Part shown: positions 1,127-63,870 of the stretch, in pieces | Layout of the letters: each line of letters starts with the position of its first letter | Numbering within the stretch: position 1 is the first letter of the stretch | Source of the DNA: Megalonaias nervosa | Taxonomy: Eukaryota > Mollusca > Bivalvia > Unionida > Unionidae | DNA: 64,000 nucleotides | Reading direction: 5' to 3' | Assembly (NCBI GenBank): GCA_016617855.1 | Contig: JAECUM010004332.1 | Location: 89,509 to 153,508 of the forward strand | Notes under the pieces: model-generated | Told to the model about the DNA's origin: nothing | The model's database searches: none | Seen by the model: the letters and a program-made list of their open reading frames with translations, nothing else | Position numbers and translations under genes: made by a program

Positions 1127-1342
1127 TATATATACTTGCATAAAATCAAATCTAACTGCAACCTACACATACCCAGATCTGCCATTGTATAATGTGCCAG
1201 TGGATCTGGTTCTGTGCAGATTGTTAGGAGTGATCAACAGAACAAATAACATATATCCTGATCTGCCTGCATATTATGTGATAGCATATCAGGGTCTTTG
1301 TTGTTTGCACTTGGACCTGACCTGTAAGCATGTATATACTGC
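1127..1342 (-). mobile_element. Palindromic MITE, copy 1
   Basis: Starts near TACTATATATACTTGC and ends near GTAAGCATGTATATACTG, forming inverted termini. Inside are two similar hairpins: CCCAGATCTG...GGATCTGGTTCTG and ATCCTGATCTG...TATCAGGGTC. They are separated by a spacer reading GGAGTGATCA, the reverse complement of TGATTACTCC, which sets the orientation as minus. The 105-codon open frame from 1086 runs through this element and is not a gene. Confidence 0.75.
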
Positions 1343-1487
1343 AGTTCACATTTTAGTAAAGAAACATTTGCTGATCATTAACTTAATATTAATGGACAGT
1401 TAGTGGTTGACTCTTGCTGCTTTCTGACAGATCTCAGATATGTGGCTCTTAAAATGTTGAGAGTCAATTCTACCATATGTATAGGGC

Positions 1488-1668
1488 CAGCCTTAGGCTG
1501 ATTGGACCAATAAAGTAATTTTAAAGCAGTGGAAGAAAATTTTAAGTTCATTGTCATTTAAAAGTTTATTTCCAAATGTTGTGCTCACAGGGGGCCCCCA
1601 CACTCATAAATCCTGGGAGCCCCACCAAAATGATCCAAATTGCGCCACACATTTGCTAAGGCCATTTC
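1488..1668 (+). mobile_element. Short GGCC-ended interspersed element, copy 1
   Basis: Begins GGGCCAGCCTTAGGCTGATT and ends ATTTGCTAAGGCCATT. The same start, middle (TTTATTTCCAAATG.TGTGC) and end recur at 28259-28407. The ends form a weak inverted repeat (GGCC.GCCTTAG against CTAAGGCC). It directly abuts the next palindromic MITE. The class is unknown; a small non-autonomous DNA element is my best guess. Confidence 0.5.
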
Positions 1669-1669
1669 T

Positions 1670-1880
1670 GCATATATACTTGCTTATGAGTTGAGTCAAA
1701 CTGTAAATGACAGTGATCCTGATCTGCTGTAGTATAATGTGCCAGCAGATCAGTCTGTTGTTTTACTGATTACTACTATCAAACTGCATAGACCCAGTTC
1801 TGCTGGCACATTGTGCAACAGCAGATCTGGGTCTGTGCAATTTGCTGTTGGACACGATCTATAAGCGAGCATAGACAGTA
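1670..1880 (+). mobile_element. Palindromic MITE, copy 2
   Basis: The left terminus CATATATACTTGCTTATGAG faces a right terminus ATAAGCGAGCATAGACAGTA. The first hairpin has the words CCTGATCTG and GCAGATCAG; the second has GACCCAGTTCTGCTGG and CAGCAGATCTGGGTC. The spacer is TGATTACTAC. Plus orientation by that spacer. Confidence 0.75.
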
Positions 1881-2411
1881 CTTGAAGAAGTTTCATTCAG
1901 TCATAAGAGTATTTCATTGTCATCTGTGATGAAATTAGATAAAAGTTTCATCATTTTCGCAAAGAACAATGACTTTGAATTTCTGGGAGTTTATATGCAT
2001 ACCATTGGCAGTAAACCAGTCATTGACTATCTTACTCCCATTTTGTAAACCAGATTTGAGATTTTTGGGATCTTTATGGGCATAAAACTGGTGTTGTCTT
2101 TGGTATAGTTATGCAGTGTTGATTGTTTGGTGAAGTAGAAAATGTCATTTAAAAAGATAATAAATAGAAGAGGTGGCAGTATTGAGCCTTGCAGTATTCC
2201 TTAGGAGATTTATCCCAATTACTAGGTGAGGATACCAATTTAGCAAGTTGTACCAGTTTCAACAGGTAGTTTTAAATTGATTTCACAGTGTTCTGATCAT
2301 TGTTGGAGTGATGAAGCTGTGTGCAGTTTTCATAATAAACTGAAAAAACATCAGCATAAATGTATGAAATGATAAAATTTTAAATAGAATATCCTTGGTT
2401 TTAAAGACAGT

Positions 2412-2622
2412 GCATATATGATTATAAATAGAGTCCCATTGTAGACAGCACTGACCCAAAATCTGCCATTGCATAATGCGCTGGCAGATTTGGGTCTGTG
2501 CAGTTTATAAGGAGTAATCAGAAAACAAGCAATATTGACCATGATTTGCCAGCACATTATGCAGCAGCAAATCAGGACCAATTTAGTTTATAGTCGGACT
2601 TGATTTATAAGCAGGTATAGAT
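2412..2622 (-). mobile_element. Palindromic MITE, copy 3
   Basis: Contains TGACCCAAAATCTGCC...GGCAGATTTGGGTCTGTGCA, the spacer GGAGTAATCAG and the second hairpin CATGATTTGCC...GCAAATCAGGACC. It ends with TTTATAAGCAGGTATAG. The termini are degraded relative to copies 9 and 10. Short open frames on the minus strand here are by-products of the palindromes. Confidence 0.75.
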
Positions 2623-3074
2623 GGTAACATGCAAATGGGTGGGTATATTACAAATTGTAAAACAAATATTTATGACCTCAGTTGCATTGAAGTTGTTCAT
2701 GCACTTCAGTAAATCATACAATTTTAGGGTTGAATCTTTTAATTCTAGCTATTTTAGCAAAGTAAAATTTTAGCATGTTCAGATTACTGAAAGTTGACAG
2801 TGAAGAATGTTCAAATAAAATAATTAAAGCGGCAATCATAGTGTTTCATTTAAAGAAAAATCCTTCGACCCATCTGAAATTTCACTCATCCATGATATGG
2901 TGGGTCGTATATGTAACCCTACTACAAATGTATAGTCATGTATCCAGTTTTTGTTACCTGTATTTTGTAGCATTTATATGTTCTTCATAAACTGTATAGG
3001 AGGTATTTTTTGGCAGGCTTCAGATTCATTTAAAAACAGGATTCTGATTTTGGTTAGTTAGATTTCAGTGATTA
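2623..3074. other. AT-rich sequence, no recognised feature
   Basis: No repeat, splice-flanked coding segment or element end was recognised. A 71-codon open frame at 2775-2990 has no recognisable motif and AT-driven composition, and I do not call it a gene. The stretch 1881-2411 is likewise anonymous. Confidence 0.5.
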
Positions 3075-3618: not shown

Positions 3619-3739
3619 TAGGTTATAACGTTTTAGGTGATACATTTTTACTGAATTCATTTTTTTAATTACACTTTGAGACCACAAAAATGCTAATTTT
3701 CTCCACCACTATAAATTAAAACAACCTATTCATATAAAT

Positions 3740-6743: not shown

Positions 6744-7041
6744 GGACCACACCAGTGCCCTAGTGGTTAGAGTGTCCGCCTCGAATGCAGGAGGTCGTGG
6801 GTTTGATCCCCGGCCAAGTCATACCTAAATGGTACTAACAGCTGCCTCGCTTGGTGCTCAGCATTAAGAGGTTAGTGTTAGAACTGGTTGGCATGGTGTC
6901 AGGATAATGTGACTGGGTGAGACATCATGCTACATGTCTGTGGCATGATGCCCCTGTGCTAGACATCACTATAAACTGTCACACTACAGACATCATAGCG
7001 ATATAACTGAAAATTTTTTAAAGCTACGTTAAAAATCCAAA

Positions 7042-7042
<1 letters not shown>
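6744..7042 (+). mobile_element. tRNA-derived SINE family A, near full length
   Basis: An A-box-like GCCCTAGTGGTTAGAGTG and a B-box GTGGGTTTGATCCCCGG give a clear tRNA-derived pol III promoter. The conserved body contains GAGGTTAGTGTTAGAACTGG, TGGTGTCAGGATAATGTGAC, CATGTCTGTGGCATGATG and CATCATAGCGATATAACTG. It ends with AAAGCTACGTTAAAAATCC and a (CA)n tail. An inverted second copy lies at 7700-8030. Confidence 0.85.

Positions 7043-7133
<91 letters not shown>
7043..7133. repeat. (CA)n microsatellite, SINE A tail
   Basis: About 45 uninterrupted CA units directly after the 3' end of the SINE. The inverted copy at 7.7 kb also ends at a GT/CA-rich stretch, so this is the family's tail, expanded here. 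Confidence 0.95.
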
Positions 7134-7699: not shown

Positions 7700-8030
7700 G
7701 TGTGTGTGTACGTGTGATTTAGATTTTTAATGTAGCTTTAAAATATTTTCAGTCATATCGCTATGATGTCTGCAGTGTGGCAGTTTATAGTGATGTTTAG
7801 CATTGGGGCGTCATGCTGCAGACATGTAGCATCTAGTCCTGTCCAGTCACAATATCCTGACACCAGACCAACCAGTCCTAACACTAACCTCATAATGCTG
7901 AGCTCCAAGTGAGGCAGCTGCAAGTACCAATTTTATAAGTCTTTGGTATGATTTAGGCCAAGATTGCAACCTGTGACCTCCCACAGCTGAGGCAGATGCT
8001 CTAACCACTTAGGCCCCTAGAGTGGCACCC
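7700..8030 (-). mobile_element. tRNA-derived SINE family A, inverted copy
   Basis: Reverse complement of the 6.7-kb copy: GT-rich tail, TTTTAATGTAGCTTTAAAAT, CATATCGCTATGATGTCTGC, CAGACATGTAGCATC, CACAATATCCTGACACCAG, then B- and A-box complements (TTGCAACCTGTGACCTCCC, GCTCTAACCACTTAGG). Near full length and moderately diverged. Confidence 0.85.
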
Positions 8031-8918
8031 CTAACTGGCAACTAAACTGAGCCCATTTATAAAGCGGTCTCAGATTTTAATGTACCCGGTATATAGGAAT
8101 ACAAATAGACATTTACAGATCACTTCAGTTCTGGATATTGTTTCAAACCAAATTCAAGATATCATATCCTCGTTTTACATCACAGTGTATTTTTTAAGTC
8201 GGAAATTTTTTATTTCACAGTATTTATGAAATATTTTTTTATATATCTCTGTAATGGTTTTATCGTTGGTGCGAGGAACACCACCCCAATGCCATTGTGC
8301 AATCAAAACATTTTGAGTTATCAGATAATCTGTGGACAATAAAATTGATTTACAGAAAGAAAGAATGAACACATGGTGCACAATTTAGATGTAGAAATTT
8401 GAGTATACAAAGTCTATCTAGGTGATATAGACGTTTATGATAATACAATGTTTTGTTCTTTTTTTTCTTCATGAAATCCAATCTAAATAAAAGAAAATAA
8501 ATAGCAAGAAAAATATTTCCTGTGCAAGTTATCTATTCATTATTGAGGCTCAGTTTTATATAACTTGCCCTCTTTTTTATTTTATGTTGTAGTTGATTTT
8601 TCATTGCTTTTATATCTTTGAACTATTCGTTTAAAAGCATAAATGGAAGGATTTTTAAAGTATAATATTGATTCAGAATAAACAAAAAAATTACATAAAA
8701 TATCCTTTTGTTATATTTCTAAATAGATATTTTTTTCTTGGACAGGTATGCAGTATTTGGTCAAAAGGTGTAAAATGTTCTATACAGCTGGCACAGTATT
8801 TTGAAAAAATGTCATAATCATAGAAGAGATGTTAAATACTTTCATTTTTACAAATTCTACAACTGTTGTCATCTCAGTCATATGTGATTTCTTTAAAAAA
8901 AAGTTATTATAACAATTA
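8031..8918. other. AT-rich sequence, no recognised feature
   Basis: Strongly AT-rich with long A and T runs. No repeat, exon or element ends were found; short open frames are uninformative. Confidence 0.5.
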
Positions 8919-9108
8919 CATACTCACTTATAAGTTAGATTCATGTACAAACAACATAGACCCTGATCTACCATCACTTATGGTGCAGGCCAGTCAGAGT
9001 CTGTGTTGTTTCTTCTACTGATTACTTCTAACAAACTATATTGACCCAGATGGCTGGTGCATCATGCAACAGCAGATCCAGGTCTAAGCTACAAGTTACA
9101 AGCCTGTG
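8919..9108 (+). mobile_element. Palindromic MITE, copy 4
   Basis: Words in order: ACTTATAAGT terminus, ACCCTGATCTACC with GCCAGTCAGAG as the first hairpin remnant, spacer TGATTACTTC, then TTGACCCAGATGGCTGG...CAACAGCAGATCCAGGTCT. The right terminus is decayed (ACAAGCCTG). An older, more diverged copy. Confidence 0.65.
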
Positions 9109-9149
9109 GAGGAAAATTACTACAACAGGTTTCTCATTTCACTCATTTG

Positions 9150-10502: not shown

Positions 10503-11054
10503 ATACACATTTGTCTAATACTTAATTACTTCATATTTCTTATTAATTTTTAGCTATACTAGATATAAATGATACACATTTGTCTAATACTTAATTACTT
10601 CATATTTCTTATTAATTTTTAGCTATACTAGATATAAATGATACACATTTGTCTAATACTTAATTGCTTCATATTTCTTATTAATTTTTAGCTATACTAG
10701 ATATAAATGATACACATTTGTCTAATACTTAATTACTTCATATTTCTTATTAATTTTTAGTTATACTAGATATAAATGATACACATTTGTCTAATACTTA
10801 ATTACTTCATATTTCTTATTAATTTTTAGTTATACTAGATATAAATGATACACATTTGTCTAATACTTAATTACTTCATATTTCTTATTAATTTTTAGCT
10901 ATACTAGATATAAATGATACACATTTGTCTAATACTTAATTGCTTCATATTTCTTATTAATTTTTAGCTATACTAGATATAAATGATACACATTTGTCTA
11001 ATACTTAATTACTTCATATTTCTTATTAATTTTTAGCTATACTAGATATAAATG
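10503..11054. repeat. Minisatellite, 8 x 69 bp, nearly perfect
   Basis: Eight head-to-tail units starting every 69 bp from 10503 to 10986. Units contain ATACACATTTGTCTAATACT, TTACTTCATATTTCTTATT and AGCTATACTAGATATAAATG. Only a few single-base variants (AATTACT/AATTGCT, AGCTAT/AGTTAT) separate them, so the expansion is recent. The preceding stretch 10005-10502 is AT-rich without features. Confidence 0.97.
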
Positions 11055-11059
11055 AGGAC

Positions 11060-11975: not shown

Positions 11976-11979
11976 TCAA

Positions 11980-14065
11980 AATAGATTATAATCACAGTAT
12001 CAAGCTCAAATAGATTTCATAATCACAGTATTAAGCTCAAATAGATTTCATAATCACAGTATCAAGTTCAAATAGATTTCATAATCATATTATTAAGCTC
12101 AAATAGATTTCATAATCACAGCATTAAACTCAAATAGATTTCATAATCACAATATTAAGCTCAAATAGATTTCATAATTACAGTATCAAGCTCAGATAGA
12201 TTTCATAATCATATTATTAAGATCAAATAGATTTCACAGTCACAGCATTAAGCTCAAATAGATTTCATAATCACAATATTAAGCTCAAATAGATTTCATA
12301 ATAACAGTATCAAGCTCAAATAGATTTCATAATCACAGTATCAAGCTCAAATAGATTTCATAATCACATTATTAAGCTCAAATAGATTTCATAATCACAG
12401 CATTAAACTCAAATAGATTTCATAATCACAATATTAAGCTCAAATAGATTTCATAATCACAATATCAAGCTCAAATAGATTTCATAATCACATTATTAAA
12501 CTCAAATAGATTTCATAATCACTTTATTAAGCTCAAATAGATTCTATAATCACAGCATTAAACTCATATAGATTCTATAATCACATTATTAAGCTCAAAT
12601 AGATTTCATAATCACAATATTAAACTCAAATAGATTCTATAATCACATTATTAAGCTCAAATAGATTTCATAATCACATTATTAAGCTCAAATAGATTTC
12701 ATAATCACAGTATCAAGCTCAAATAGATTTCATAATCACAGCATTAAGCTCAGATTTCATAATCACAGCATTAAGCTCAAATAGATTTCATAATCACATT
12801 ATTAAGCTCAAATAGATTTCATAATCACATTATTAAGCTCAAATAGATTTCATAATCACAGTATTAAGCTCAAATAGATTTCATAATCACATTATTAAGC
12901 TCAAATAGATTTCATAATCACAGTATCAAGCTCAGATAGATTTCATAATCACATTACATGTATTAAGCTCAAATAGATTTCATAATCAGCATTAAGCTCA
13001 AATAGATTTCATAATCACAATATTAAGCTCAAATAGATTTCATAATAACAGTATCAAGTTCAAATAGATTTCATAATCACAGTATCAAGCTCAAATAGAT
13101 TTCATAATCATAGTATCAAGCTCAAATAGATTTCATAATCACATTATCAAGCTCAAATAGATTTATCAAGCTCAAATAGATTTCATAATCAGTATCAAGC
13201 TCAAATAGATTTCATAATCAGAGTATCAAGCTCAAATAGATTTCATAATCACAATATTAAGCTCAAATAGATTTCATAATCACAGCATTAAACTCAAATA
13301 AATTCTATAATCACATTATTAAGCCCAAATAGATTCATAATCACAGATTAAGCTCAAATAGATTTCATAATCACAGCATTAAGCTCAAATAGATTCTATA
13401 ATCACAATATTGAGCTCAAACAGATTTCATAATCACAGTATCATGCTCAAATAGATTTCATAATCACAATATTAAGCTCAAATAGATTTCATAATCACTT
13501 TATTAAGCTCAAATAGATTTCATAATCACAGTATCAAGCTCAAATAGATTTCATAATGACAATATTAAGCTCAAATAGATTTCATAATCACAATTATTAA
13601 ATCACAATCTCAAATAGATTCTATAATCACATTATTAAGCTCAAATAGATTTCATAATCACAATATTAAGCTCAAATAGATCTCTAATCACAGCATTAAA
13701 CTCAGATTACAGTATTAAACTCAAATAGATTTCATAATCACAGCATTAAACTCAAATAGATTTCATAATCACAGCATTAAGCTCAAATAGATGTTATTAA
13801 AATCACAGTATTAAACTCAGATTACAGTATTAAACTCAAATAGATTTCATAATCACAGCATTAAACTCAAATAGATTTCATAATCACAGCATTAAGCTCA
13901 AATAGATGTTATTATAATCACAGTATTAAACTCAAATATATTTCATAATCACAGATTAAGCTTAGAGTTTATAATCACAGTATTAAACTTAAATAGATTT
14001 TATGATCACAGTATTAAAAACAAATAGATTTTATAATCATAGTATTAATTTATCATCACAGTAGT
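11980..14065. repeat. Large minisatellite, 31-bp unit, about 65 copies, inside a LINE
   Basis: The unit consists of CTCAAATAGATTTCATAATC followed by a variable 11-bp segment: ACAGTATCAAG, ACATTATTAAG, ACAGCATTAAA or ACAATATTAAG. In the 5' third these variants follow each other in a recurring four-unit order, giving a higher-order repeat of about 124 bp. The 3' end is more degenerate, with deleted units. It sits between two halves of the LINE ORF2 remnant. The first unit grades into LINE-like sequence, so the seed may be LINE-derived. Confidence 0.95.
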
Positions 14066-16172: not shown

Positions 16173-17867
16173 TAGTTTGGGGCACATCATGTCATTGTGA
16201 AGCTCTTTGTTCAGTAGTATCTATCAAGTTAGGGGAAAAAAACCCCAAGCTACTCTTTTCTGGTTTCTTATGCAAATTACATCTCCTTTTCATGGAATAA
16301 TGCATATACATGTAATTCAATAGCACAGCAGCAGTTGACTAGTAGACAGCGAAGGAAGGGCCTCTTTATTTATAATCAGTCACACTCAGAACGGTGAAAC
16401 AGAAAAGTTTAACCTGTGTCAACGAGATTATCATTCAGCATCTTGCACAGAAGATTCACGAACCCTTGTTTATCAGAACTGCACGTATACTAAGAATATA
16501 AGTAGTAAAGAAAACCTGTTTGTGTCATTGGTACCCAGCATGTGGTATACTTTCAGTACAATATGACAGTAAAAATTTGATTTGGATGATCTTTCTGCCA
16601 GTAGTGTTATATCAAGATAAAATGCGTTTTTATTCATCGTAAGGTACAAAAAATAATCTTACAACTCACTGGAAATGGTGTGACCATTACATTATGACAT
16701 CACTGATATGGCATTACATTTTACCTTAGTGTGTCATGGCATTATTAATTCAGGGATTAAATAGAAAACAATGTTACTAATAACGAAAATGAAAAATTAT
16801 TATACAATTTGTTCATTCACAGTAACAATTTTGTGAGAGAAAATCATGAAGTCAAAAAAAAGTATTGCAGGAACGGGAAACCTAATTTTTTTGGACCTGC
16901 TGTAATCGTATGCACAGACTTTCTGTTGCAGAAACTGAAGTGATCTCCATAATCGTGTCATACTGAGAAATATTTTCTTACCGCTATGTACAGTTTATGT
17001 GTAAGAGAAGTCTTTGGTTTTCAGCCTGTGCAGACTGAATTAATTTTTAAATATTCATTCAATCTTTTTTATGTGTAAGAAAAGTCTATGGTTTTCGACC
17101 TGTGCAGATTGAATTAATTTTTAAATATTCATTCAGCCATTTGTATGTGCGATTAGTAATATAGAACTTTTTCCTCAAACTTTTCTATGTAATAATTTTT
17201 ACTTGGGGATAGATAATCAACTTAGAGCAGTGCAAGAGGTATTTATCTTTTTGGTGATTTTGGATTCCTTTGTCTTAGTTATGCAGAAATAACAAATTTA
17301 AAACAAATTTAAATACTCCATCATCTTCTGCAAGTTTTGTTCCTTTTTTTGAATTAACCAAAATTGCTTCTCTTTGTAATGTATTAGACCAATAAAACTG
17401 ACTTTTGTTTTTTGCTCATCTATATAAAATGTGAAATGAATCTCAACTAATCGACAATTAAGCTCTGTAAACAGCTCTCTGATAATTTTGTTTTCTTTAT
17501 GGAATCTTCTTTGTTTATCATTACATTATGACATCATTGATATGGCATCAAACCCCACCCATAACAACATAAACAGAATAAAAAATAATGTATTTTTTGT
17601 TAATGCAAATTTTCTACATCCTGGGGCTAAATGGAAGCTATTCTTCTCATTCTAATGTAAGGAGGTTATCAAGCTATAACAAACCACTTGTAGATAAAGA
17701 AACTTTGTAGTATGTTCACATCTTGTGAGCTTTCATTGCCCATGCATTTATGAGGAATCCAAATGCTTTTAGTTTGGAAACCACTCACATCTGAAGTGGA
17801 ACTCTTGCAAGAATCATATATTTCAAGTACTGCATATGAAGTTTTCCTTACCGTATGCAGGAACCAT
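16173..17867. other. AT-rich sequence with a short duplicated segment
   Basis: No gene recognised. A direct duplication of about 70 bp lies at 16999-17150 (AAGTCT.TGGTTTTC, CTGTGCAGA.TGAATTAATT). The phrase CATTACATTATGACATCA is repeated at about 16685 and 17518. Otherwise anonymous. Confidence 0.5.
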
Positions 17868-18042
17868 CCATACTTGTTTATAGCTCGAGTCAAACTGCAA
17901 ACAACAAAGATCCTGATCTGACATAGCCTAATGTGTCTTTCAGATTTATGGACCCAGATCTGCTGGCGCATTATGCAACAGCAGATCTGGGTTGGTATAG
18001 TTTGCAGTTGGACTTGACTTATTGACTTATAAGCAAGTATAC
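17868..18042 (+). mobile_element. Palindromic MITE, copy 5, internally shortened
   Basis: Left end TACTTGTTTATAGCTCGAGT and right end ACTTATAAGCAAGTATACAG are inverted. The first hairpin keeps GATCCTGATCTG; the spacer is deleted. The second hairpin is well preserved: GACCCAGATCTGCTGG and CAACAGCAGATCTGGG around GCGCATTATG. A 140-codon minus-strand frame crossing it is spurious. Confidence 0.75.
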
Positions 18043-19369
18043 AGTAATGTATATTGAGCCTGAACAACAAATTTCTTACAGGGTTTTCCAACCAGAATTT
18101 GTAGCTAATAGTGGTTAGAGGTCTGACCTATCAAAACAACCAGGCATTTGATTGACCTATCGAGTGCCTATTGATAGGTCTGTTTACTGCCACAGTGAGA
18201 GAAAATTACACAGCAGAGTTGATCATCCATTTACAAACTTCAAAAGTTCTGTGTTTCTCTAAACTGATCTCTTTCATTTAAGCTTTATGGATTGCAGACC
18301 ACATGTAAGAACTTCATTACGTCAAAACTTAAGAGCTTGACAGTTTGCAAGATCTTCTGACCTCAAAACTGAAGAGTTTGAAAACAGGAACATGGGTGAT
18401 TTTATTTTACAAAAAACACACAATAACATTTTTATGAAAAATTTTACATAGTTCAAATTACGTTAAAGACATAGGTTGACTTATCAGGTCGTAACAGCAT
18501 GAAAAGGATTTAAATCTGTGGAACTATTTTGATAGATGTATAACATATGTTGACAGAGCTGGACTTAATGATAATATGTAAAATTGTACAGTGAATCATC
18601 AGATAGTAGAGATGCTTACTTAGTGGCAATAGTGCAGAGTGCCTCCTTTTTATACCCCAACCCTGACCTATTTTTAAGTGTAAAGAAAACTACTGAAATA
18701 TATCTCACTATAAAATTCACGTGGCCATTGCTGGTGAAATAAGAACTTAATTAGTTATGATGTGTATGTACAGTTAAGTGTATATAGTAAATTTACTGCT
18801 TAAAAGTGGATGGTTTGAACAGATGCATTTTCTATTTTTGCATAACGTAGATTTAATGCTTACTGGGAAGTGAAAGTTAATTTGACCACTCCAAAAATGC
18901 TCATTAAAATTTTAGGGTGTAGCTTCAGTAGGTTAATGTAAAGTTTCCTTCCATTAAAAAATTCAAATAAAAACTACTATGAATTATACTATATTCTCAA
19001 CTGAAAAGAAGTTACTCTCTTTCATAATTATCTTCCACCCACTTAAGCTGGGGCAGGGGAATATAGATGGATTCAATCCATCCACTTGTTTTCCTTCTAA
19101 CCATCAGTCCATCCACCTGTCTGTCACACTTTTAGGGTACAACTCCAAACCTGCCCAAGAAACCTCTAATAACTTTAGTACACATACTAGATTGGTGGTC
19201 TAGGTGTGCAATTTACTATTCACATGTCTTCATTTGTAATATTTACAATGTTTTTCTCCATTTGTCTCTCCAGCCAACCGTTATCCACTCTTTGGTTTCC
19301 AGGGCAAAATCCCAACACCATTTATGGTATCTTTTTGAAATTGGCAGACACACATGCGTATATATATAT
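18043..19369. other. AT-rich sequence, no gene recognised
   Basis: A small imperfect hairpin (GACCTATCAA...TTGATAGGTC) lies near 18125-18180. From about 19080 the phrase TCCATCCACCTGTCTGTC and the following 200 bp resemble sequence on the other side of the LTR element (26040-26230). No exon was seen. Confidence 0.45.
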
Positions 19370-20269
19370 AGTTACGTGTAGGCTCGTACAAAAGTAACAA
19401 AAGAAAAGAGTGAAGTCAACAAGCTTTGTAAATTTAACAAAATAATTTATTTCCCTAGAAAACAAGGTAAAAATATGAAATAGGACTTACGGTTTGTGAA
19501 TCTAATCCAAAAATTAATCCTAGAATTCAAAAATATAAGTCCTATCACTAAAAAGCTCTAAGTTCGAATCTCGATGAAGTTCCAATATGGAAGGCGATGA
19601 CATCCTCAATAACCAGTTTGTGTTGATGTGTCAACAGTTCCTTGTTGAGTCACCAAGAATATAATTCCGGCTTTTGAATTCCAAATAATTTAGTAAATGT
19701 CTTTGTCCAAGAATTTCGATGAAAAAGAGTATTTTCCAGGGTGAATAAATTATTTTAAATAAAAAACTCAAATCAAATGGCAACAACAGGAATACCTTTT
19801 GGCCTGAAGGTATATTTTATGACTGATCAAATCCACTAGAAAATGTCTCTTTTAACCTGTGATTTTAGATCACATGATGGCTCACGTGGTCACTTAACTT
19901 GAACAGCGCAGTAAAAAAATGCCAATTTGCACATAGGCTAGGATGCCCTATCTAAGAATCAGATTCCCACACTGGAAATAAATTTAAAAATAAAACTGAT
20001 TACAACAAAGCTAACACGTAGGCTGAACATGACCTTGGTAATGACCAATCATTTTCACTCAATGTTTACAGAATTGGAACCAAGGTCAAGAACTAGGTCA
20101 GCTTAAAATATAATGTAGCAATCATTTTGCGTTCTAATCAGACTAAAAGAACTGAACTAAATTTACTTGGAAAAATGTCAAATCCAGTAAAATATTATCC
20201 TTACAATAAAATGTAATGAAACAAAAAAAAATATAAAACTAACACACAAATAATTTAAGTACATATACA
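19370..20269 (-). repeat. 3' LTR of the Gmr1-like element
   Basis: About 900 bp, colinear with 24825-25733. By eye the two LTRs differ at some 30-40 positions plus an 11-bp indel, implying an insertion that is not very recent. On the element strand it starts TGTATATGTA after the polypurine tract and ends CACGTAAC against (TA)n. Confidence 0.9.
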
Positions 20270-20277
20270 CTTCCCCC
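20270..20277 (-). other. Polypurine tract, GGGGGAAG
   Basis: On the element strand GGGGGAAG directly precedes the TG that begins the 3' LTR, the expected position of the plus-strand primer. It is preceded by another pyrimidine/purine-biased run (CTTTCTTTTTCTTTAT). Confidence 0.75.
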
Positions 20278-20405
20278 ATAAAGAAAAAGAAAGATTTATA
20301 TAATAAAGCTTTCTTTTTACCATATGTAAATTATACATGAGGTAAAACAAAATTACATAAGAAGAACTCTTATGAATTATACAAAGTATATATGAAATAA
20401 TATTT

Positions 20406-21092
20406 CTATACACGGGAAAGTGCATCTGGAATTAAATTATCTTTTCCCTTGATGTGCCTGATGGCAAGATTATATTCTTGTAAAAACAAACTCCACCTTA
20501 ATAATCTTTGATTTTTATTTTTCATCTTGTCAATGAAAGTAAGGGGGTTGTGATCACTAAACACAACAACTGGAGAAGGGACTGAACTAATGTAAACTTC
20601 AAAATGCTCTAATGCCAGTATTAAAGCCAAACATTCCTTCTTGATTGTTGAGTAATTTCTTTGGTGCTTATTTAATTTCTTAGAGAAATAGCACACTGGA
20701 TGATCAACACCATTTCTGTCTTCTTGAATCAATACTGCTCCAACCCCAACATCACTTGCATCAACAGATAGTTTAAAGATTGACTGAAATTTGGAGCTGT
20801 AAGAACCGGTGCACTTTTAAGTATGGCTTTTAACCTATCAAAAGCCTCCTGACATTTTTCAGTCCAAAGAAACTTGTTTTTCTTGCTCAACAAGTTTGTC
20901 AGGGGTTCAGCAATATTAGAAAAATTGGAACAAAATTTCCGTTAGTATCCAACTATACCTAAAAATCGCATCAGCTGCTTTTTACTGACAGGCACAGGGA
21001 AATCAGAGATAGCCTTGACCTTAGCATCTATAGGTTTAACTTGTCCATATTGCACAATATGTCCTAGAAAAGTTACACAAGCACGGCAGAAC
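20406..21092 (-). pseudogene. RT C-terminal (thumb/connection) and RNase H of the Gmr1-like element
   Basis: The RNase H piece (20406-20732) keeps the family landmarks: VDHPVCYFSKKLN, STIKKECLALILALEHF (catalytic Glu at residue 33 of the open segment), VVVFSDHNPLTF (Asp at 60) and the terminal NLIPDALSRV (Asp at 103). The first catalytic Asp lies upstream in 20733-21092, which holds the RT thumb/connection in shifted frames with at least two breaks. RNase H removes the RNA template during reverse transcription in the particle. Confidence 0.88.
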
Positions 21093-21815
21093 TCACTTGG
21101 ATAAATTGATTGTCAAACTTGCATCAGTGAGTCTGTCAAAGAATTTCTGAATTGTTGCTAGATGTTCTCTCCAGGTGTCGTTGTAGATGATGACATCATC
21201 GATGTAAGCATCACAATTATCTAGACCAGAGGTAATCATATTCATCAAACGTTGAAAGGTACTTGGGGAACCCTTCATCCCGAATGGCATTACTTTATAT
21301 TGATAGAGTCCATCTGGAGTCACAAATGCTGAAATTTCCTTTGCCCTTTCTGTTAGTGGAATTTGCCAAAATCCTTTCAGAAGGTCGAATTTGGTGATGT
21401 ACTTGGCATTTCCAATTTTATCAATACAGTCATCGATTCTTGGTAATGGAACTGAATCTGTTTTTGTCACACTGTTCACCTTCCAATAATCAGTGCACAT
21501 ACGGAAAGTTTTATCTGGTTTCAGAACAAGTATGCATGGTGAACTCCAGTCACTTTTACTGGGCTCGTTGAAATCACTCTCCAGCAAATACTGATTTTCC
21601 TTTTTCAGGTATTCCTGTTTGAGAGGGTTCATCCTGTATGGGTGTTGTTTCACAGGTTTAGAATTCACAATTTCACCGTCATGAAAAAATTTGTTTGTCC
21701 TTGTAGGAACATCTGGAAATAAGTGCTCAAATTCAAATAATAACTGTTTAAGTTCATTCTTTTCCTGTTGCTGTAAATGTAAAAGTTTCTGGTCCAGATT
21801 TTTCATAATTTCCAA
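21093..21815 (-). pseudogene. Reverse transcriptase of the Gmr1-like element
   Basis: An open segment of 240 codons covering most RT fingers and palm motifs: SDWSSPCILVLKPD (residues 88-101), motif A KFDLLKGFW (Asp144), VMPFGMKGSPSTFQ (175-188, gypsy type) and the catalytic box YIDDVIIY (204-211). Catalytic residues are intact in this piece. The N-terminal LFPDVPTRTN linker joins it to the integrase upstream, as in Gmr1-like polyproteins. The frame is lost before and after. The start methionine is internal, since the normal product is a polyprotein. Confidence 0.93.
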
Positions 21816-21961
21816 ATTCCAAAGATTTGTCGCTCCAAAATCAATAGTGTCCGATTGAATTCATTCACTTAAATCCACAGTGAGTGGGACAGGGACAACT
21901 AAATCAATTGCATGATTTACTTGGCTGTCTCTTTCTATATACTGGTACTCCATTAATTTAT

Positions 21962-22515
21962 TTAGATCAGAGTACTGTTATTATAATTTAACTCATTTGT
22001 TTTCTTCTTAACTTTGTAAGGGCCGTAAAATCTAATTTGAAGAAAATTTTGAAGAATGAGCAAGAGAAAATGAACTCTATTACAAGACTCAAAACTTCTC
22101 TCAAGTAAAGTTCTTTGAAACCATAGTTTCACTTTTGACTTGAATTGCTGAATGCCAAATTCAAGCATAACTAGCTGGAAATTTCCAGACATAAAATTTG
22201 ACCCTTGATCTGATTGGACAGATTTGGGAAGGCCAAATTGAGTAAAAACTTTATCAAAGCTTTTACTATAGTTTTGGTTTTAATGTTCCTCAAAGGAATT
22301 GCCTCTGGGAATCTTGTTGACGCACACATAATGGTTAACAAATATTGGTTGCCTGACTTGGTCTTAGGTAAGGGACCAACACAGTCTACCAAAATTCTGC
22401 TAAATGGTTCGTCAGATGCAGGAATAGGTTGCAGATGAGCCTTAGGTATCTTCTGATTGGGTTTTCCTACCATTTGACAAGTATGACAAGATCTGCAGTA
22501 TTTACAAAACATCAC
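21962..22515 (-). pseudogene. Integrase core and GPY module of the Gmr1-like element, internally deleted
   Basis: Contains the zinc-finger cysteines CRSCHTCQ, then ILVDCVGPLP (first catalytic Asp) and, after a frame change, an SDQGSNFM stretch (second Asp) and LEFGIQQFKS. Sequence then jumps directly to the C-terminal region ending FYGPYKVKKKTNELNY (GPY/F module). The segment that should carry the catalytic Glu (the ALERF-like helix) is missing, so this copy lacks a complete DDE site. Integrase lies upstream of RT in the element. Confidence 0.85.
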
Positions 22516-22909
22516 TTTTGATTTTTGGCCAACAAAAGTGAGTCAAGATCTTGTGATAAGTCTTATTAATCCCTAAATGACCAGCCAGAGGAGTTTCATG
22601 GGCCAAACTAAGTATTTCCTGTCTGTAAGACTTTGGAACTACAATTTGATAGTTCACCGACCGTTCATCACCAGCAGGTACCTTGGGAAGTCTCCATTTT
22701 CTCATAAGAATTCCATTTTTAATGAAATAACAGACAGGTACTTCAGTGGCTTCAGTTTCACTAATGGCCCTCTGAAACAAACAGGAGATCTCAGGATCTT
22801 TTTCCTGTTCGATGACAAGTGATTGTCGTTTAACACCCTGATTAGATAAAAGAGAATGAGTAGTTAAAAGAGGATCACTGTGATCGATACCTTTGATTGC
22901 TCCAAACAT
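22502..22909 (-). pseudogene. Protease-integrase linker and integrase HHCC zinc finger, N-terminal part
   Basis: The segment ends in LAHETPLAGHLGINKTYHKI and FCWPKIKSDVL. It supplies the His residues of the H2C2 finger, while the two Cys pairs lie across a frame break in the next piece. The upstream half, with ARG/LYS-poor VIEQEKDPEI and NGILMRKWRLPK words, matches the linker found before integrase in gypsy-type polyproteins. Confidence 0.85.
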
Positions 22910-23220
22910 GGAGTGAAAGTGACCTCATCAAAAGTCCGACCAATACATGTGTCAGCTAAAGGAATGTTTTCCTTATCGAAATCATTCTCAAGAGCTTTCT
23001 TTGCCATAGCTCGAGTAACTGCACAAGCTGGGTATAAATGAGGAAATTCTGTTTCAATTGGCTCAACTTTCTGATCCAAAGAAAGCTTGTCAGTTACAAG
23101 TGGATTAACCACAACCTTGTCTCCAGCTAGGTCGTTGCCTAGTAACAAATGAATGCCCTCAACAGGTAAAGAAGACACTATACTGACTGTCACAGGTCCT
23201 GAAACTAAGTCTGATGACAA
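22864..23220 (-). pseudogene. Protease C-terminal half of the Gmr1-like element
   Basis: The words SSLPVEGIHLLLGNDLAGDKV correspond to the flap-distal strand and the conserved LLLGNDLAG segment of retroelement aspartic proteases. PACAVTRAMAKK follows, a typical spacer before integrase. The active-site half is in another frame upstream (23318-23340). Confidence 0.8.
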
Positions 23221-23317
23221 ATTTACAGAATGGAGAGGAACATTAACAAAGCCGCACTCTACTCCCTGAATTAGAAGACTTCTCAGAAAAAGGCAAAGTA
23301 CCTGATAATAAAAGTCT

Positions 23318-23872: not shown

Positions 23873-23982
23873 GAGTTGTCTGAGACTTTTGTAATCTTTG
23901 TTAACCTTTCTAGAAGAGCACCACCTATCAAATTGTTGTGCTTTTTCCCATGCAAGTTCGACATAGGTCTTGTCAGTTGATT

Positions 23983-24600: not shown

Positions 24601-24797
24601 AAAATTTCCAAACACTCCTGGATAAAATTTTAAAAAGTCTCTACCTTTGATGATACTTTGAAAAAAAGCCTGTTGATTCCACTGAAAATTTCAAACAAAA
24701 TATGAAATAGTACTTGGGATTTAAAAAACTTCTGAAAACTAGGGGAATTTAAATTTCAAAAACAATTTTTTGGGAAATATTTAGCCAAAATTCATAT

Positions 24798-24815: not shown

Positions 24816-24824
24816 GTTTTCTTT

Positions 24825-25739: not shown

Positions 25740-25806
<67 letters not shown>
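25740..25806. repeat. (TA)n microsatellite
   Basis: About 33 TA units between the LTR element and palindromic MITE copy 6. A shorter TA run abuts the other side of the LTR element (about 19360-19369). Confidence 0.97.
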
Positions 25807-25812
<6 letters not shown>

Positions 25813-25950
25813 TTATGAGTCCAACTGCAAAACTGCGCAGATCCAGATCTGCCATCACGTAATGCATCAGTAGATCTGGATCTGTGCATTTTGTCAGGAG
25901 TAATCATACACCATGATTTGCAGGCACATTATGCTAAGGCAGATCAAGAC

Positions 25951-25953
<3 letters not shown>
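25807..25953 (-). mobile_element. Palindromic MITE, copy 6, with (TA)n at both ends
   Basis: Contains GCGCAGATCCAGATCTGCC...AGTAGATCTGGATCTGTGCA, the spacer GGAGTAATCA and CATGATTTGCAGGC...GGCAGATCAAGACC. Both outer TIRs, which normally hold TATATA, are replaced by long (TA)n runs. Confidence 0.8.

Positions 25954-26023
<70 letters not shown>
25954..26023. repeat. (TA)n microsatellite
   Basis: About 34 TA units immediately after MITE copy 6, similar in length to the run on its other side. The following 26024-26465 resembles 19080-19330 in its first 200 bp (TTCATTT..AATAT, TTTGTCT.TCCA.CCA) and holds no gene. Confidence 0.95.
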
Positions 26024-26026
<3 letters not shown>

Positions 26027-26465
26027 TTACAATAAATCTTTACAATAATATAGTGGTCCAGCTGTACCATTTGCTATTCAGAATTCTTCATTTCCAATAT
26101 GTTTTATGCATTTGTCTGTCCATCCACCGTTCCATTTTTCCCACCGCTTCTCCATCCATCATACACTTCATTTCTGGAGTAAAAATCCCAAACAGTTCAA
26201 GATATTCATATGGGACATCATATCCAGTTGACGTAACAAGATAAAATTACGAAAATAAGTGTGCACACATATGATGCCTATTGCTACTCCTTATCCATTG
26301 TAAATTTGAACTCCCTATAAGTATAATCTCCAGCAAGTCCTTTTGCCTCCTAACACATTTTTGAAGGGCAGATAAATGTAGATGACTTTTTGTTGTTGTT
26401 GATACTGGTTTTCTGTGAGCAATTCCGAAGTGCTAGCACTTTAAATTTGTATATTAAGTCCATAC

Positions 26466-26668
26466 GTTACATACTTGCCTTATAAGTCAAGTCAAACTGC
26501 AGAGAACAAAGATCCCTATTTGCCATAGCATAATGCACCTGCAGATCAGGACGTATTTTGTTTTTCTTCTGATTATTCCTAACAAACTGCATATACCCAG
26601 ATCTGCTGCCACATTATGCAATGGCAGATCTGGGTCTTTGTAGTTCGCAGTTTAGCTCAAGTATGTAC
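26466..26668 (+). mobile_element. Palindromic MITE, copy 7
   Basis: Left end ATACTTGCCTTATAAGTCAA; first hairpin GATCCCTATTTGCC...GCAGATCAGGAC; spacer TGATTATTCC; second hairpin ACCCAGATCTGCTGCC...ATGGCAGATCTGGGTC; right end CTCAAGTATGTACAC. Close to full length. Confidence 0.8.
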
Positions 26669-26811
26669 ACATATATTTGTTCTTTTGAAACCTTCCTGCA
26701 TTTTTGCCCGAGTTGCAAAGATATTTGAGCTTATGGAATTTTCTTGAGCTTGACAATCCATTCCTTCTCTTTGCATATCTGACTTGCAACTGGTGGGTCA
26801 TGAGTTCAAGA

Positions 26812-51675: not shown

Positions 51676-51882
51676 TACTGTATATACTCAAGTCAGATCC
51701 AACTGCAGACTGCGCAGACCCAGATCTGCCATTGCATAACATGCCAGCCGCTCTGGGTCTCTGCAGTTTGTCAGGACTAATCAGTAGGACAAGTAACATA
51801 GACTCTGATCTGTCCATGTATTATATAATGGCAGATCAAGGTCTCTTATTTGCAGTTGGACCAGACTTGTGAATATATACGA
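51676..51882 (-). mobile_element. Palindromic MITE, copy 8
   Basis: Left end TACTGTATATACTCAAGTCA; first hairpin GCAGACCCAGATCTGCC...CCGCTCTGGGTCTCTGCA; spacer GGACTAATCAG; second hairpin ACTCTGATCTG...GGCAGATCAAGGTC; right end TTGTGAATATATAC. Close to full length. Confidence 0.8.
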
Positions 51883-52409
51883 AACATTATACGCTGAAAA
51901 CTGTAAAGACCAAAATGTAACTATACCAAATTCTTCATGAAAATGAAACAGTCTTCTAGTCCCAAATGTTTTCTTTAATTTGATAAAAATTGTTCATTAG
52001 ACTGAAAACCCTCTACTCTGACAACCAAAACATATTGTTGGGCCCACATTTCATATTTTTACTGAAATGAATCTTGTAAAACCAGAACTTGCTCAAAATG
52101 TGGCCAGGTTCCTGCCAGATCCCAGCTATGATGTTGGCTAATGGTCTGGAAATAATATAGGGCTTGCATGCAGTAAAAAACAAAGTCTGGCACCCACACT
52201 GTTATAGACTACAGCCAGTGTAAACAGTAGGCTAAAGTGACAGCTTTCAAAGTTAATTGTTTATAATAGAGTGCCAGTGGTGTGCAAATCAAAGGAGATT
52301 ATGTTTATTTGTCATCATCTATGTCACCATACACCTAAATAATCCTTAATCCTGTGTCAACTGGCCTTTGAACTTAATGTATATCAGTATATTAATAAAA
52401 CAAAAAGTT

Positions 52410-54783: not shown

Positions 54784-55005
54784 TACCATATATACTCAAA
54801 TATAAGTCGTGACAAATTGCAAACAACAAAGACCTTGATCTGCCATAGCATGATGTATCTGTAGACCAGGGTATATATTGTTTATTCTACTGGGTACTCC
54901 TAACAATCTGCACAGACCCAAATCTGCTGGCACATTATGCGATGGCAGATCTGGGTCTGTGCATTTTGCAGATGGACTTTGACATAGAGGTGAGTATATA
55001 TGGTA
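54784..55005 (+). mobile_element. Palindromic MITE, copy 9, best TIRs
   Basis: A perfect 15-bp terminal inverted repeat: TACCATATATACTCA at 54784-54798 and TGAGTATATATGGTA at 54991-55005. The first hairpin is ACCTTGATCTGCC...GTAGACCAGGGT. The spacer is GGGTACTCC. The second hairpin is CAGACCCAAATCTGCTGG...GATGGCAGATCTGGGTCTG. Full-length reference copy for the family. Confidence 0.88.
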
Positions 55006-60925: not shown

Positions 60926-61524
60926 TCCTGCATTTGTTGCTTCTTTTGACATGCAGCTGTATGCATTGGGCCTATTCTAAATCCCCAAGTGTATGGATAG
61001 CCTAAATTCGAGTTTAGAGTTATATACAATACCTTTAGAGTGCAATTGTGTCATTGAAATTAAGAATATGCCAATATATGTAAGATTAGGAAAGAATTAT
61101 TAAAGTTCAGTACCACTCTAACTAGATTCTGAATAGAGATACAGAATGTTGGAATCTTAATTATGTTTGTACTTTGAACTCAAGTTCAGGTTGTATGCAG
61201 AGTTGGAGAAAAAGTAGCATGTTGTGATAATGACAACTGGAATTCTTGATTATACACTGCAGTGGCACTCAAAGAATGAATCTCTTCCTGATTTTTTGGC
61301 TTTCATTTGAGCTCTCTGTATAAACTGATCTCTGTTTTTATTTCCATTTTATACCCTATCATTATATTTATTCAAGAGTTATGGTGTAATTAACTTTTTG
61401 GCAAAGTGGAGGGGAGTTGATCCTCATTTAGAATAAAAAACATAAGAAAATTAATGTATCAGAGAGTATACCTTGTATTGTGAGGAAAGATGATTTTGAT
61501 GTCTTAATGGGAAGATAAGCTTTG
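60926..61524. other. AT-rich sequence, no recognised feature
   Basis: No exon, repeat or element end identified. Confidence 0.45.
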
Positions 61525-62000
61525 CTTTCAAGCCCTCGGCAACCATTTTGTTCTCAAGCCCCCAGCAACCATTTTGCTCTTAAGTTATAGGCAACAATTT
61601 TCCTCTCAAGCTGGCATCTGTTTTGTTCTCAGCTTAAAGCAATCCTTTTGCTCTCAAACCCTAGGCATCCATTTTGCTCTCAAGCTATAGGCAACCCTTT
61701 TGCTCTCAAGTCGTAGGCAATCATTTTGCTCTAAAGCTATAGGCAACCCTTTTTCTGTCAAGCCTTAGGCATCCATTTTGCTCACAAACTGGCATCCATT
61801 TTGCTCTCAAGCTGGCATCCATTTTGCTCTCAAGCTGTAGGCAACCCTTTTGCAGCTAGCATCCATTTTGCTCTCAAGTTATAGGCAACCATTTTGCTCC
61901 CAGGTTGACCACCATTTTGCTCTCAAGCTCTTGGCAACCATTTTGCTGTCCTGTTATAGGCAACCATTTTGCTCTTTAGTTGTAGACAATCATTTTGCTA
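61525..62000. repeat. Minisatellite, about 30-bp unit, about 16 copies
   Basis: CATTTTGCTCTCAAGCTATA followed by GGCAAC, with frequent deletion variants (CTGGCATCCATTTTGCTCTC). Degenerate but continuous. The 62-codon open frame at 61850-62041 is a repeat artefact. Confidence 0.92.
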
Positions 62001-62686
62001 AGAGAACTCATAAATTTGTTAAATATGCACTCTTACAGTGAATGAGCAAGTATGAGAACCAGACTTATAAATGCAAATATGCCCTGATAACATGGGGTGA
62101 TGGGGTTGGGGCAGCAGCACTAACAGTGCCCAGTTTTAAACTCATAAATCCATCACTGGATGATGACAGTAGTGAGGGAAATAAAATGCATTTCAGTATA
62201 TGCATCCTTCTTAGTACGTACTAAGATCAACAAAATGGTCTAGCAAGTTTGAAATAGTATGAAAAGTCAAGATTCAGAATAATTCTGTCAGCATTCTCTG
62301 ATATATACTTTCCAAATAAATCTTTGCAGCACAGTCAAGAGTCTAGGTTCATGACATTTCTTAAACACTTGAATATTTGAAATACTTAGATGTCTTAACT
62401 ATTTCCATTTTCCATAATCTTGCATATTATATAGATTATGATAATTGGGGCAGAGATAAAAATAGTTGGGTGGAAAGTAAACATTTCAAGTTGACATGAT
62501 GGTGTATTTTTATTCCCACCCAAAAGCATTGAGAAAATAATTCTTCAGATTTTAGGAAGTTCCCAGATTTTACTCAGAGGAATAAGTGAGGATCCAATTT
62601 AGAGGATCCACTTTCAGAAGGATCCAATTTAAAATGTGATCATTAGATACACACATGTGATCGATTCTGTCAACACTCCATTCATG
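62001..62686. other. AT-rich sequence, no recognised feature
   Basis: A small triplication GAGGATCCA/AAGGATCCAATTTA lies at about 62588-62632. No gene. Confidence 0.45.
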
Positions 62687-62901
62687 GGCCCTGGGTGGCC
62701 AAGTGGTCTAAAGCACTTGCCTTTCATATCACTGCCATCTCACTCCTGTCCACATGGGTTCGAGTCCCAGGCTCAGCCAGTGTTATGTAAGAAAGCTTGC
62801 CAGGACATTCCCATTGGTTGCTTGTTCTTACCGGGTTTTTCTTGGGTTCTTCATCTGTTATACTGGATGTCATGCATAGCTGTGTAAACCCTAAACAACA
62901 T
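62687..62901 (+). mobile_element. SINE family B with the best pol III boxes
   Basis: GGTGGCCAAGTGGTCTAAAG is the A box and GGGTTCGAGTCCCAGG contains a perfect B box. The body reads GAAAGCTTGCCAGGACATTC, TTCTTACCGGGTTTTTCTTG, TTATACTGGATGTCATGCAT. It ends GTAAACCCTAAACAACA, slightly 3'-shortened. The A-to-B spacing suits a long-variable-arm (Leu/Ser) tRNA ancestor. Confidence 0.85.
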
Positions 62902-63647
62902 TTACAGTCCTCGGTGTTCATTTCTTGTAATTTTTGCTTTTAGTTTTCATCACTGCAGATAAAGCATTAGGAAAGGTTTTTGAAAACCTCATTATGATGG
63001 AGAAACCTTTTCATTTTAGCAACCTTCAGTTAAATTTCTCACTTCACAATAAATTTCCAAAGATGTGAAGTTAAGAAATTTCCATCCAAAATATGATTCT
63101 GTGCAACAGCTAGCTGCATAGAGTTTAATGAAGTTGTACATGTGCTGGTATTTCAAAATGGAGGTAGCAATCAAGGAACTTCCACAATAGCTTCTGTATT
63201 CTATGGTTTTTAATTGCATATAAAGATTGTTTATATTTATTTTTCTTGCATGACATTTCTGAAATGTAATTTCAATGATGAATCATTTCCAGTAATAAAT
63301 ATTTGTGTGACAAACATCATTAACCTAGTTGTAATTGTAATTATGAACTTGCAAATCACATGCTATAAACTATGTTTGTATTGTCCTGCTCTTTCAACCA
63401 TTTTGACTGAAATATTTGAATTCTGTTATTTAATATTGATCCCCAGGTTACAACAAGTCCAATGTAATGTTTAAGACAATTATTTTTTTAAAAGTTATAA
63501 TCTTTTTGTTTGTTTTGTGGGTGGTGGTATACAAATAATTATAGGTAAATAAGACTAACCACAACTGATTTTTAAATACAGATGTTAACAAATCATTGAA
63601 AAGAGTAGGACGTTCTATATACCAAATATATACAGGACAAAATTCTG
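62902..63647. other. AT-rich sequence, no recognised feature
   Basis: No exon, repeat or mobile element identified. Confidence 0.45.
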
Positions 63648-63870
63648 TACCATATATACTTGCTTATAAGTCAAGTCAAACTGGTAACAACAAAGATCCT
63701 GATCTGCCATAGCATAATACACCTGAAGGTCAGGGTCTCTGATGTTTGTTCTACTGATTACTCCCAACAAACTGCACAGACCTAGATCTGCTGGTGCATT
63801 ATGTAACAGCAGATCTGGGTCTGTGCAGTTTGCAGTTGGACTCGTCTTATATAAGCAAATAAAGACAGTA
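63648..63870 (+). mobile_element. Palindromic MITE, copy 10, best hairpin
   Basis: Left end TACCATATATACTTGCTTAT; first hairpin GATCCTGATCTGCC...GAAGGTCAGGGTC; spacer CTACTGATTACTCC. The second hairpin at 63768-63832 has 26-bp arms with one mismatch around GTGCATTATGTAA. Right end TATAAGCAAATAAAGACAGTA. The remaining 63871-64000 shows no feature. Confidence 0.85.

What the first reader, a model, noticed from the sequence alone, without database searches (positions are those of the whole stretch)
1127..63870. Dense family of palindromic MITEs with two nested hairpins, ten copies in 64 kb
Copies at 1127, 1670, 2412, 8919, 17868, 25807, 26466, 51676, 54784 and 63648 share one architecture: AT-rich TIR (TACTGTATATACTTGC type), hairpin 1 (CCTGATCTG...CAGATCAGG), spacer TGATTACTCC, hairpin 2 (CCCAGATCTG...CAGATCTGGG), then the TIR. 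The two hairpins resemble each other, so the element looks like an internal duplication of a palindrome. The loop CATTATG is conserved in both hairpins, and the arms are better conserved than the TIRs in several copies. That suggests the hairpins matter, either as transposase-binding arrays or as RNA hairpins. I do not know a named family with this structure.
Basis: partly seen in the sequence, partly recalled or inferred. Interest (0 to 1): 0.75.

Follow-up and report, generated by a model that had tools for sequence, protein, structure and literature searches.

The report
Abundant palindromic mini-transposon in mussel
This is a very common, long-dead, non-coding jumping-DNA family in what is probably a freshwater mussel genome, built as a palindrome made of two smaller palindromes; it is mostly an ordinary member of a known class with an unusually tidy nested structure.

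Summary
In detail: the ten copies are real and the profile search found no other in the window. The element is about 217 bp, mostly flanked by TA, and nearly its own reverse complement: TIR 34, hairpin 65, spacer 19, inverted hairpin 65, TIR 34. So it is one full-length inverted repeat whose halves each contain a palindrome. It lies in a 2.19-Gb assembly; 17 copies in 200 kb sampled elsewhere extrapolate to about 1.9x10^5 copies, 1.6% of the DNA. Chance reading frames over it match "hypothetical proteins" of the mussel Potamilus.

The inference that arms are specially conserved fails: in 67 copies arms differ from consensus by 8.7%, the spacer by 9.2%. Much of the extra variation in loops and TIRs sits in CpG-type columns. 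With CpGs restored, the H2 "loop" belongs to the palindrome (31 of 32 pairs).

Best reading: a MITE moved in trans by a TA-targeting Tc1/mariner-type, perhaps pogo/Tigger, transposase. No partner with this TIR and no empty site was obtained. One oddity remains: the two hairpins differ by matched changes on both arms, so each palindrome diverged as a unit in the source elements.

The parts
1126..1341 (-). MITE copy 1 (H2 1159-1223, spacer 1224-1242, H1 1243-1307)
   Evidence: profile match; coordinates
1670..1878 (+). MITE copy 2 (H1 1704-1763, spacer 1764-1779, H2 1780-1844); its left flank matches another repeat (28306-28402) up to the element edge
2410..2624 (-). MITE copy 3 (H2 2442-2507, H1 2526-2590)
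8913..9122 (+). MITE copy 4, 3' TIR not recognisable
17864..18044 (+). MITE copy 5, inner half of hairpin 1 and spacer missing
25798..25969 (-). MITE copy 6, TIR ends replaced by (AT)n 25740-25806 and (TA)n 25954-26024
26460..26670 (+). MITE copy 7
51678..51894 (-). MITE copy 8
54786..55003 (+). MITE copy 9, TA on both sides (H1 54820-54884, H2 54904-54968)
63650..63868 (+). MITE copy 10, TA on both sides, nearest the consensus of the ten (9.7% different)
63684..63748 (+). hairpin 1 of copy 10
63749..63767 (+). spacer of copy 10
63768..63832 (+). hairpin 2 of copy 10, inverted relative to hairpin 1

Best explanation
A non-autonomous cut-and-paste DNA transposon family (MITE) of about 217 bp. 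Shown: a repeated unit mostly flanked by TA; one full-length inverted repeat whose halves each hold a 65-bp palindrome; of the order of 10^5 copies, each decayed independently from one consensus, with TG/CA variation of the CpG type concentrated in TIRs and loops. Inferred: the copies were moved in trans by a TA-targeting transposase of the Tc1/mariner superfamily, perhaps pogo/Tigger, acting on the outer 34-39 bp; amplification is long past; the inner palindromes were properties of the source elements, kept symmetrical there most likely by arm-to-arm template switching in a folded strand, and serve no host function.
For: TA outside the 5' edge in 49 of 67 copies and outside the 3' edge in 47 of 66, both in 35 of 66, against 11% TA (130 of 1179 dinucleotides) nearby. 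Consensus reads as its own reverse complement (with CpGs restored 89 of 108 pairs). 17 copies in 200 kb elsewhere. Star-like divergence, mean pairwise 0.220 against 2 x 0.1155. The inferred CpG-rich TIR word has 93 exact genome matches and 0 for its reversed control; 40 scored places match the inferred 62-bp half-element at 95-100%. Arms and spacer decay alike. DDE_1 (pogo/Tigger-type) transposases are abundant in the same genome: 150 matches over the cut-off among 150 scored of 1704 candidates.
Against: No autonomous element with this TIR was found: none of the 93 TIR places or 40 half-element places is within 5 kb of the 150 scored DDE_1 matches (lists compared by eye; one contig shared, 35 kb apart). 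The one Tigger remnant read, beside a copy in L064, has a different TIR. No empty site was obtained (genome-wide query did not complete). Only 2 of the 10 window copies keep TA on both sides. TIRs and loops stay somewhat more variable than arms even without CpG-type columns.
Confidence: 0.8

Rival explanations
1. The hairpins are functional structures (small-RNA precursors, ADAR substrates, cruciforms or transposase-binding arrays) kept by selection in the copies.
For: Very stable fold of the inferred element (RNA -147.9 kcal/mol, z -20; copy 10 as DNA z -9.0). Arms vary less than TIRs and loops. Paired changes in excess in H2 (11 against 4.2, 0.4% of shuffles reach it; 8 against 3.5 without position 9). 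MADE1 hairpins gave rise to mir-548 in primates (PMC1784062, passages).
Against: Spacer is as conserved as the arms; much of the excess in loops and TIRs is CpG-type; no excess of paired changes in H1 (6 against 6.2), and a similar excess in the TIRs (43 against 31.3); no Rfam match at gathering score in the window.
Confidence: 0.07
2. It is a foldback-type element, or one of another superfamily, whose ends only look TA-flanked because TA is part of the element.
For: Full-length inverted repeat; TA beside both ends could be element sequence; no empty site seen.
Against: No other flanking position is conserved above 52% in 67 copies, so no longer duplication is seen; size and homogeneity fit a MITE.
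Confidence: 0.1
3. The copies are a dispersed satellite or products of segmental duplication, not transposition.
For: Three copies lie within 1.5 kb (1127, 1670, 2412); the sampled copies are clumped (17 copies in 9 of 20 stretches); one locus (L020) has a partial copy abutting a full one.
Against: Flanks of the ten window copies do not match one another apart from shared neighbourhood; copies lie in dozens of contigs in both orientations with the same edges.
Confidence: 0.03

Closest known systems
MADE1, human MITE of the mariner Hsmar1 (PMC1784062, passages)
   Same: Near-perfect palindrome of two TIRs with a tiny middle, many copies, hairpin when transcribed; TA duplication (recalled)
   Different: 80 bp with 37-bp TIRs and no inner palindrome; parent known
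Stowaway MITEs of grasses (PMC1925063, passages)
   Same: Short palindromic insertions at TA, mobilised by mariner-like elements
   Different: Different 10-bp TIR consensus (CTCCCTCCRT); plants; no palindrome within each half described in the passages
BogoMITE of the ciliate Blepharisma, pogo/Tigger-derived (PMC9942856, passages)
   Same: MITE swarm attributed to a pogo/Tigger-family transposon (HTH_Tnp_Tc5, DDE_1)
   Different: Parent identified, TIR and TAA duplication differ, about 389 bp
Pearl-family and other MITEs of bivalves, e.g. DTC84, CvA (PMC5139131, passages)
   Same: Bivalve non-autonomous elements; a conserved palindrome is reported in DTC84
   Different: Modular with satellite-like tandem repeats inside
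Ac-mMITEs of pineapple (PMC8449440, passages)
   Same: Insertion in (TA)n tracts, as for copy 6 here
   Different: There about 74% are flanked by TA microsatellites; here one of ten window copies; plants

Membership tests
MITE | Short (under about 600 bp), non-coding, with terminal inverted repeats | tested here: met
   217 bp; TIRs pair 29 of 34 in the 67-copy consensus; reading frames over it are interrupted in part of the copies and match only its own kind
MITE | High copy number and dispersal | tested here: met
   17 copies in 200 kb, reversed control 0; 40 scored places on 40 contigs or positions
MITE | Target-site duplication at insertion | tested here: inconclusive
   TA at both ends in 35 of 66 copies, but no empty site obtained
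MITE | Derivation from, and mobilisation by, an autonomous transposon | tested here: inconclusive
   No DDE_1 match within 5 kb of 93 TIR and 40 half-element places, but only 150 of 1704 candidates were scored and no flank could be read
Tc1/mariner superfamily (incl. pogo/Tigger) | TA target | tested here: met
   TA in 49 of 67 and 47 of 66 flanks against 11% nearby
Tc1/mariner superfamily (incl. pogo/Tigger) | DDE/D transposase carrying the same TIR | tested here: not met
   None found in the scored part; DDE_3 (Tc1-type) search sent twice, never answered. Hence not filed as a pogo/Tigger member
Known Rfam structured RNA | Match to an Rfam model at gathering score | tested here: not met
   0 matches in the window
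Named Repbase/Dfam family | Match to a library consensus | not testable with these tools
   Libraries not held; four sequence words searched together in papers (at least two required) gave none

The most novel reading that the evidence does not exclude
The inner hairpins are maintained by a recurrent process in the source elements: whenever the single strand folds, during replication or transposition, one hairpin arm is used to correct the other, so whole palindromes evolve as units (H1 and H2 have drifted apart by matched two-sided changes). The palindromes would then be part of how the family amplifies, and of the order of 10^5 relics would record arm-to-arm correction in an animal genome.
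Probability: 0.2. Interest if true: 0.55.

Novelty: new member of a known kind. Interest (0 to 1): 0.3.

Why it matters
By the sample the family makes up about 1.6% of a 2.2-Gb assembly, and chance reading frames of its relatives stand in databases as mussel 'hypothetical proteins', so a curated consensus would improve mussel annotation. The nested palindromes and their matched divergence are a natural data set for asking how hairpin arms stay complementary. The case also shows how CpG decay can pass for selective conservation of stems.

Tried and rejected
Constraint on arms: not supported, arms = spacer, and CpG-type columns explain much of the rest. Compensatory change in decayed copies: weak and not specific to the hairpins (H2 11 against 4.2, H1 6 against 6.2, TIRs 43 against 31.3). 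Cloverleaf against one long hairpin: not separable. The minimum-energy fold of the inferred ancestor is a TIR stem with two hairpins, but with fixed structures the long hairpin scores better for that ancestor (-145.0 against -129.7) and in 46 of 67 copies (there the cloverleaf was given no pairs in its loops, which handicaps it). Empty sites: joined flanks against 336 kb gave own-site, tandem or half matches only, plus one weak crossing row between different loci (L051 against L049, 73% over 79 bp, E 3e-6) not followed up. Copy 2's repeat flank supports its left edge only. The Tigger remnant beside a copy in L064 is a separate element with its own TIR. Viral and prokaryote collections: no match (14 pattern matches, none a relative). 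Window RNA families and tRNAs: none. Rows dropped: copies covering under 150 model positions were left out of the 67 (9 short fragments); the 39 copies picked by similarity to copy 10 are biased towards well-preserved ones, so the other 28 (10 window, 12 sampled, 6 chance neighbours) are reported apart. The 20 sampled stretches are not random draws: I set round coordinates in contigs already known to hold a copy.
Full report
WHAT IS THERE. The window is eukaryotic DNA full of old repeats. A profile of the ten finds those ten places and no other; each place also matches on the opposite strand because the element is nearly its own reverse complement. The consensus against its reverse complement gives 180 of 224 identical. 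The layout is TIR 34, arm 24, loop 17, arm 24, spacer 19, arm 24, loop 17, arm 24, TIR 34. Hairpin 2 is hairpin 1 turned round, so the element is a long inverted repeat with a 19-bp middle, and each half contains a palindrome of its own. Copy 17868 has lost half of hairpin 1 and the spacer, 25807 sits between two (TA)n tracts without TIR ends, and 8919 has no recognisable 3' TIR.

HOW COMMON. The window lies in an assembly of 2,190,679,487 bases in 54,709 contigs. A search with copy 10 named 4302 first-look candidates and scored 40 places, giving 80 rows. I fetched the 39 places outside the window with flanks and 20 stretches of 10 kb at round coordinates of contigs known to hold a copy, away from those copies. 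The 200 kb hold 17 copies, 12 of them spanning most of the element, in 9 of the 20 stretches; the reversed sequence holds none. This extrapolates to about 1.9x10^5 copies and 1.6% of the DNA; with 17 clumped counts the uncertainty is at least 1 to 3x10^5 (my arithmetic). The window, with 10 in 64 kb against 5.4, is about 1.8 times denser than that sample.

WHOSE GENOME. Chance reading frames over the element were used as probes. The first search gave 5 proteins, unnamed, four from Logan contigs and one from ENA ('Logan' for the label lgn is recalled). A wider profile, which includes those five, gave 9 (5 lgn, 2 ENA, 2 named): the two named are 'hypothetical protein' of Potamilus streckersoni, a unionid freshwater mussel (E 8.9e-11 and 5.6e-10). 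So relatives occur in a freshwater mussel and the window probably comes from one; this is inference, no host gene was identified. The Potamilus genome paper reports 51% repeats, half of them uncharacterised, and 13.7% DNA transposons (PMC7937423, passages); in Unio delphinus 21.9% of the genome is DNA elements, TcMar-Tigger 0.5% (PMC10235117, passages).

ENDS. In 67 copies covering at least 150 model positions, the two bases outside the 5' edge are TA in 49 of 67 and outside the 3' edge in 47 of 66; both in 35 of 66. TA makes up 11% of dinucleotides in the nearby flanks, and no other flanking position exceeds 52% for any base. Of the ten window copies two keep TA on both sides; others show TG, CT, TT, AA, AT or CA on one side or are decayed. 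TA is the target of Tc1/mariner, including pogo (PMC7325037, passages). An empty site could not be obtained: joined flanks found none in 336 kb, and the genome-wide query did not complete.

CONSERVATION. In the 67 copies, divergence from consensus is arms 543/6229 (8.7%), spacer 115/1244 (9.2%), loops 474/2214 (21.4%), TIRs 748/4387 (17.1%). In the 28 copies not chosen by similarity to copy 10 it is 13.8, 12.3, 26.2 and 23.0%. Spacer and arms do not differ. Twelve neighbouring column pairs in loops and TIRs, and none in arms or spacer, show a mixture of TG, CA and (0 to 33%) CG, the trace of CpG decay; in some of these pairs CG itself is nearly gone, so the ancestral CpG is inferred. Without these columns loops are at 11.4% and TIRs at 12.4% (18.3 and 18.6% in the 28). 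An excess over the arms remains in both sets, with bootstrap intervals above 0, and part of the drop follows from leaving out variable columns. The DNA is poor in CpG: observed/expected 0.19 in the window, 0.32 in the 200 kb. The inferred CpG-rich TIR word exists: 93 exact matches in the genome and none for its reversed control; 40 of 41 rows for the inferred 62-bp half-element are 95-100% identical (40 of 1428 candidates scored).

STRUCTURE. Hairpin 2 alone folds as DNA at -40.5 kcal/mol, z -15. The whole inferred element folds at -147.9 kcal/mol as RNA, z -20, with a TIR stem and two hairpins. Single copies go either way: copy 10 as DNA keeps hairpin 2, copy 9 as RNA forms one long hairpin, and with fixed structures the long hairpin is better in 46 of 67 copies.

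THE ODDITY. In the ten-copy consensus the arms of one hairpin fit each other (22 and 24 of 24 pairs) better than they fit the other hairpin's arms (19 and 20 of 24); the 67-copy consensus gives the same figures. Read in the same orientation, the hairpins differ at positions 5 (A-T in H1 in 57 of 67 copies, T-A in H2 in 58), 6 (A-T in 43, G-C in 53) and 16 (T-A in 57, A-T in 59), each changed on both arms; position 9 is changed on both arms without a pair in H1, position 13 on one arm. That all four arm-a differences coincide with arm-b differences has probability 5x10^-4 if placed at random (the test was framed after seeing the data). So each palindrome diverged as a unit in the source elements: by arm-to-arm correction in a folded strand, by compensating changes, or by origin of each palindrome after the ends had diverged. 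Within decayed copies paired changes exceed shuffles in H2 (11 against 4.2; 8 against 3.5 without position 9) and the TIRs (43 against 31.3; 24 against 11.8 without CpG columns), not in H1 (6 against 6.2); variants of the source elements explain this well enough.

AGE. Divergence is star-like (mean pairwise 0.220, twice the mean distance to consensus 0.231), with median K2P at non-CpG columns 0.164 in the window (10), 0.183 in the sampled stretches (12) and 0.067 in the 39 query-chosen copies. The copies look like independent relics of past bursts.

MECHANISM. Most likely a MITE moved in trans by a TA-targeting DDE transposase acting on the outer 34-39 bp. The pogo/Tigger choice is inference: the genome has at least 150 DDE_1 matches over the cut-off (150 scored of 1704 candidates), and the TIR core resembles pogo/Tigger ends as I recall them. 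Against it, none of the 93 TIR places or 40 half-element places lies within 5 kb of those 150 matches (lists compared by eye; one contig shared, 35 kb apart). The one Tigger remnant that I read, within 1 kb of a copy in L064, starts with a different TIR and carries an HTH_Tnp_Tc5 and a DDE_1 piece with stops between. A lone TIR end at L064:3806-3841 matches the outer 39-45 bp and then continues into other DNA; it is 1 of 133 TIR hits in the fetched DNA that lies outside a copy, and may be the end of a longer relative.

LITERATURE. Ten searches of the paper library showed, in the listings and in passages of eight papers, no element described as a palindrome of two palindromes. Repbase and Dfam could not be searched, so a catalogued name may exist.

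VERDICT. It is, as far as these searches show, a new member of a known kind.

Noticed in passing
window 19371-25321, minus strand: LTR retroelement with LTRs about 96% alike and broken frames; Pfam order SCAN-like gag piece (below Pfam's cut-off), integrase zinc binding, RVT_1, RNase H, i.e. integrase before reverse transcriptase. This fits a Gmr1-like Gypsy (name recalled). 25200-25803 repeats 19735-20338 at 91%, a second partial copy.
   Followed up: partly
L064 8480-9950: Degenerate Tigger-type transposon (HTH_Tnp_Tc5 and DDE_1 pieces) within 1 kb of a MITE copy, starting CAGAGTCTCCTCACTTAACGACC, a different TIR.
   Followed up: partly
L064 3806-3841: Lone TIR end of this family followed by unrelated DNA, no partner found in the 10 kb: possible longer relative.
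   Followed up: partly
window 10503-11055, 11979-14048, 28489-29290: Tandem arrays of 69-, 31- and 36-bp units.
   Followed up: no
proteins P0128, P0129: Two 'hypothetical proteins' of Potamilus streckersoni (CHS0354_038711, CHS0354_033258) contain translated pieces of this MITE, probably annotation artefacts in part.
   Followed up: partly
window against the 20 sampled stretches: CpG observed/expected 0.19 in the window and 0.32 in the sampled 200 kb.
   Followed up: no
L020 near 800-1136: A partial MITE copy directly abuts a full copy: tandem or nested insertion.
   Followed up: no
window 6816-7059 and 7700-7943: 244-bp inverted repeat pair, 85% complementary, whose sequence recurs next to MITE copies in L010 and L045.
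   Followed up: no
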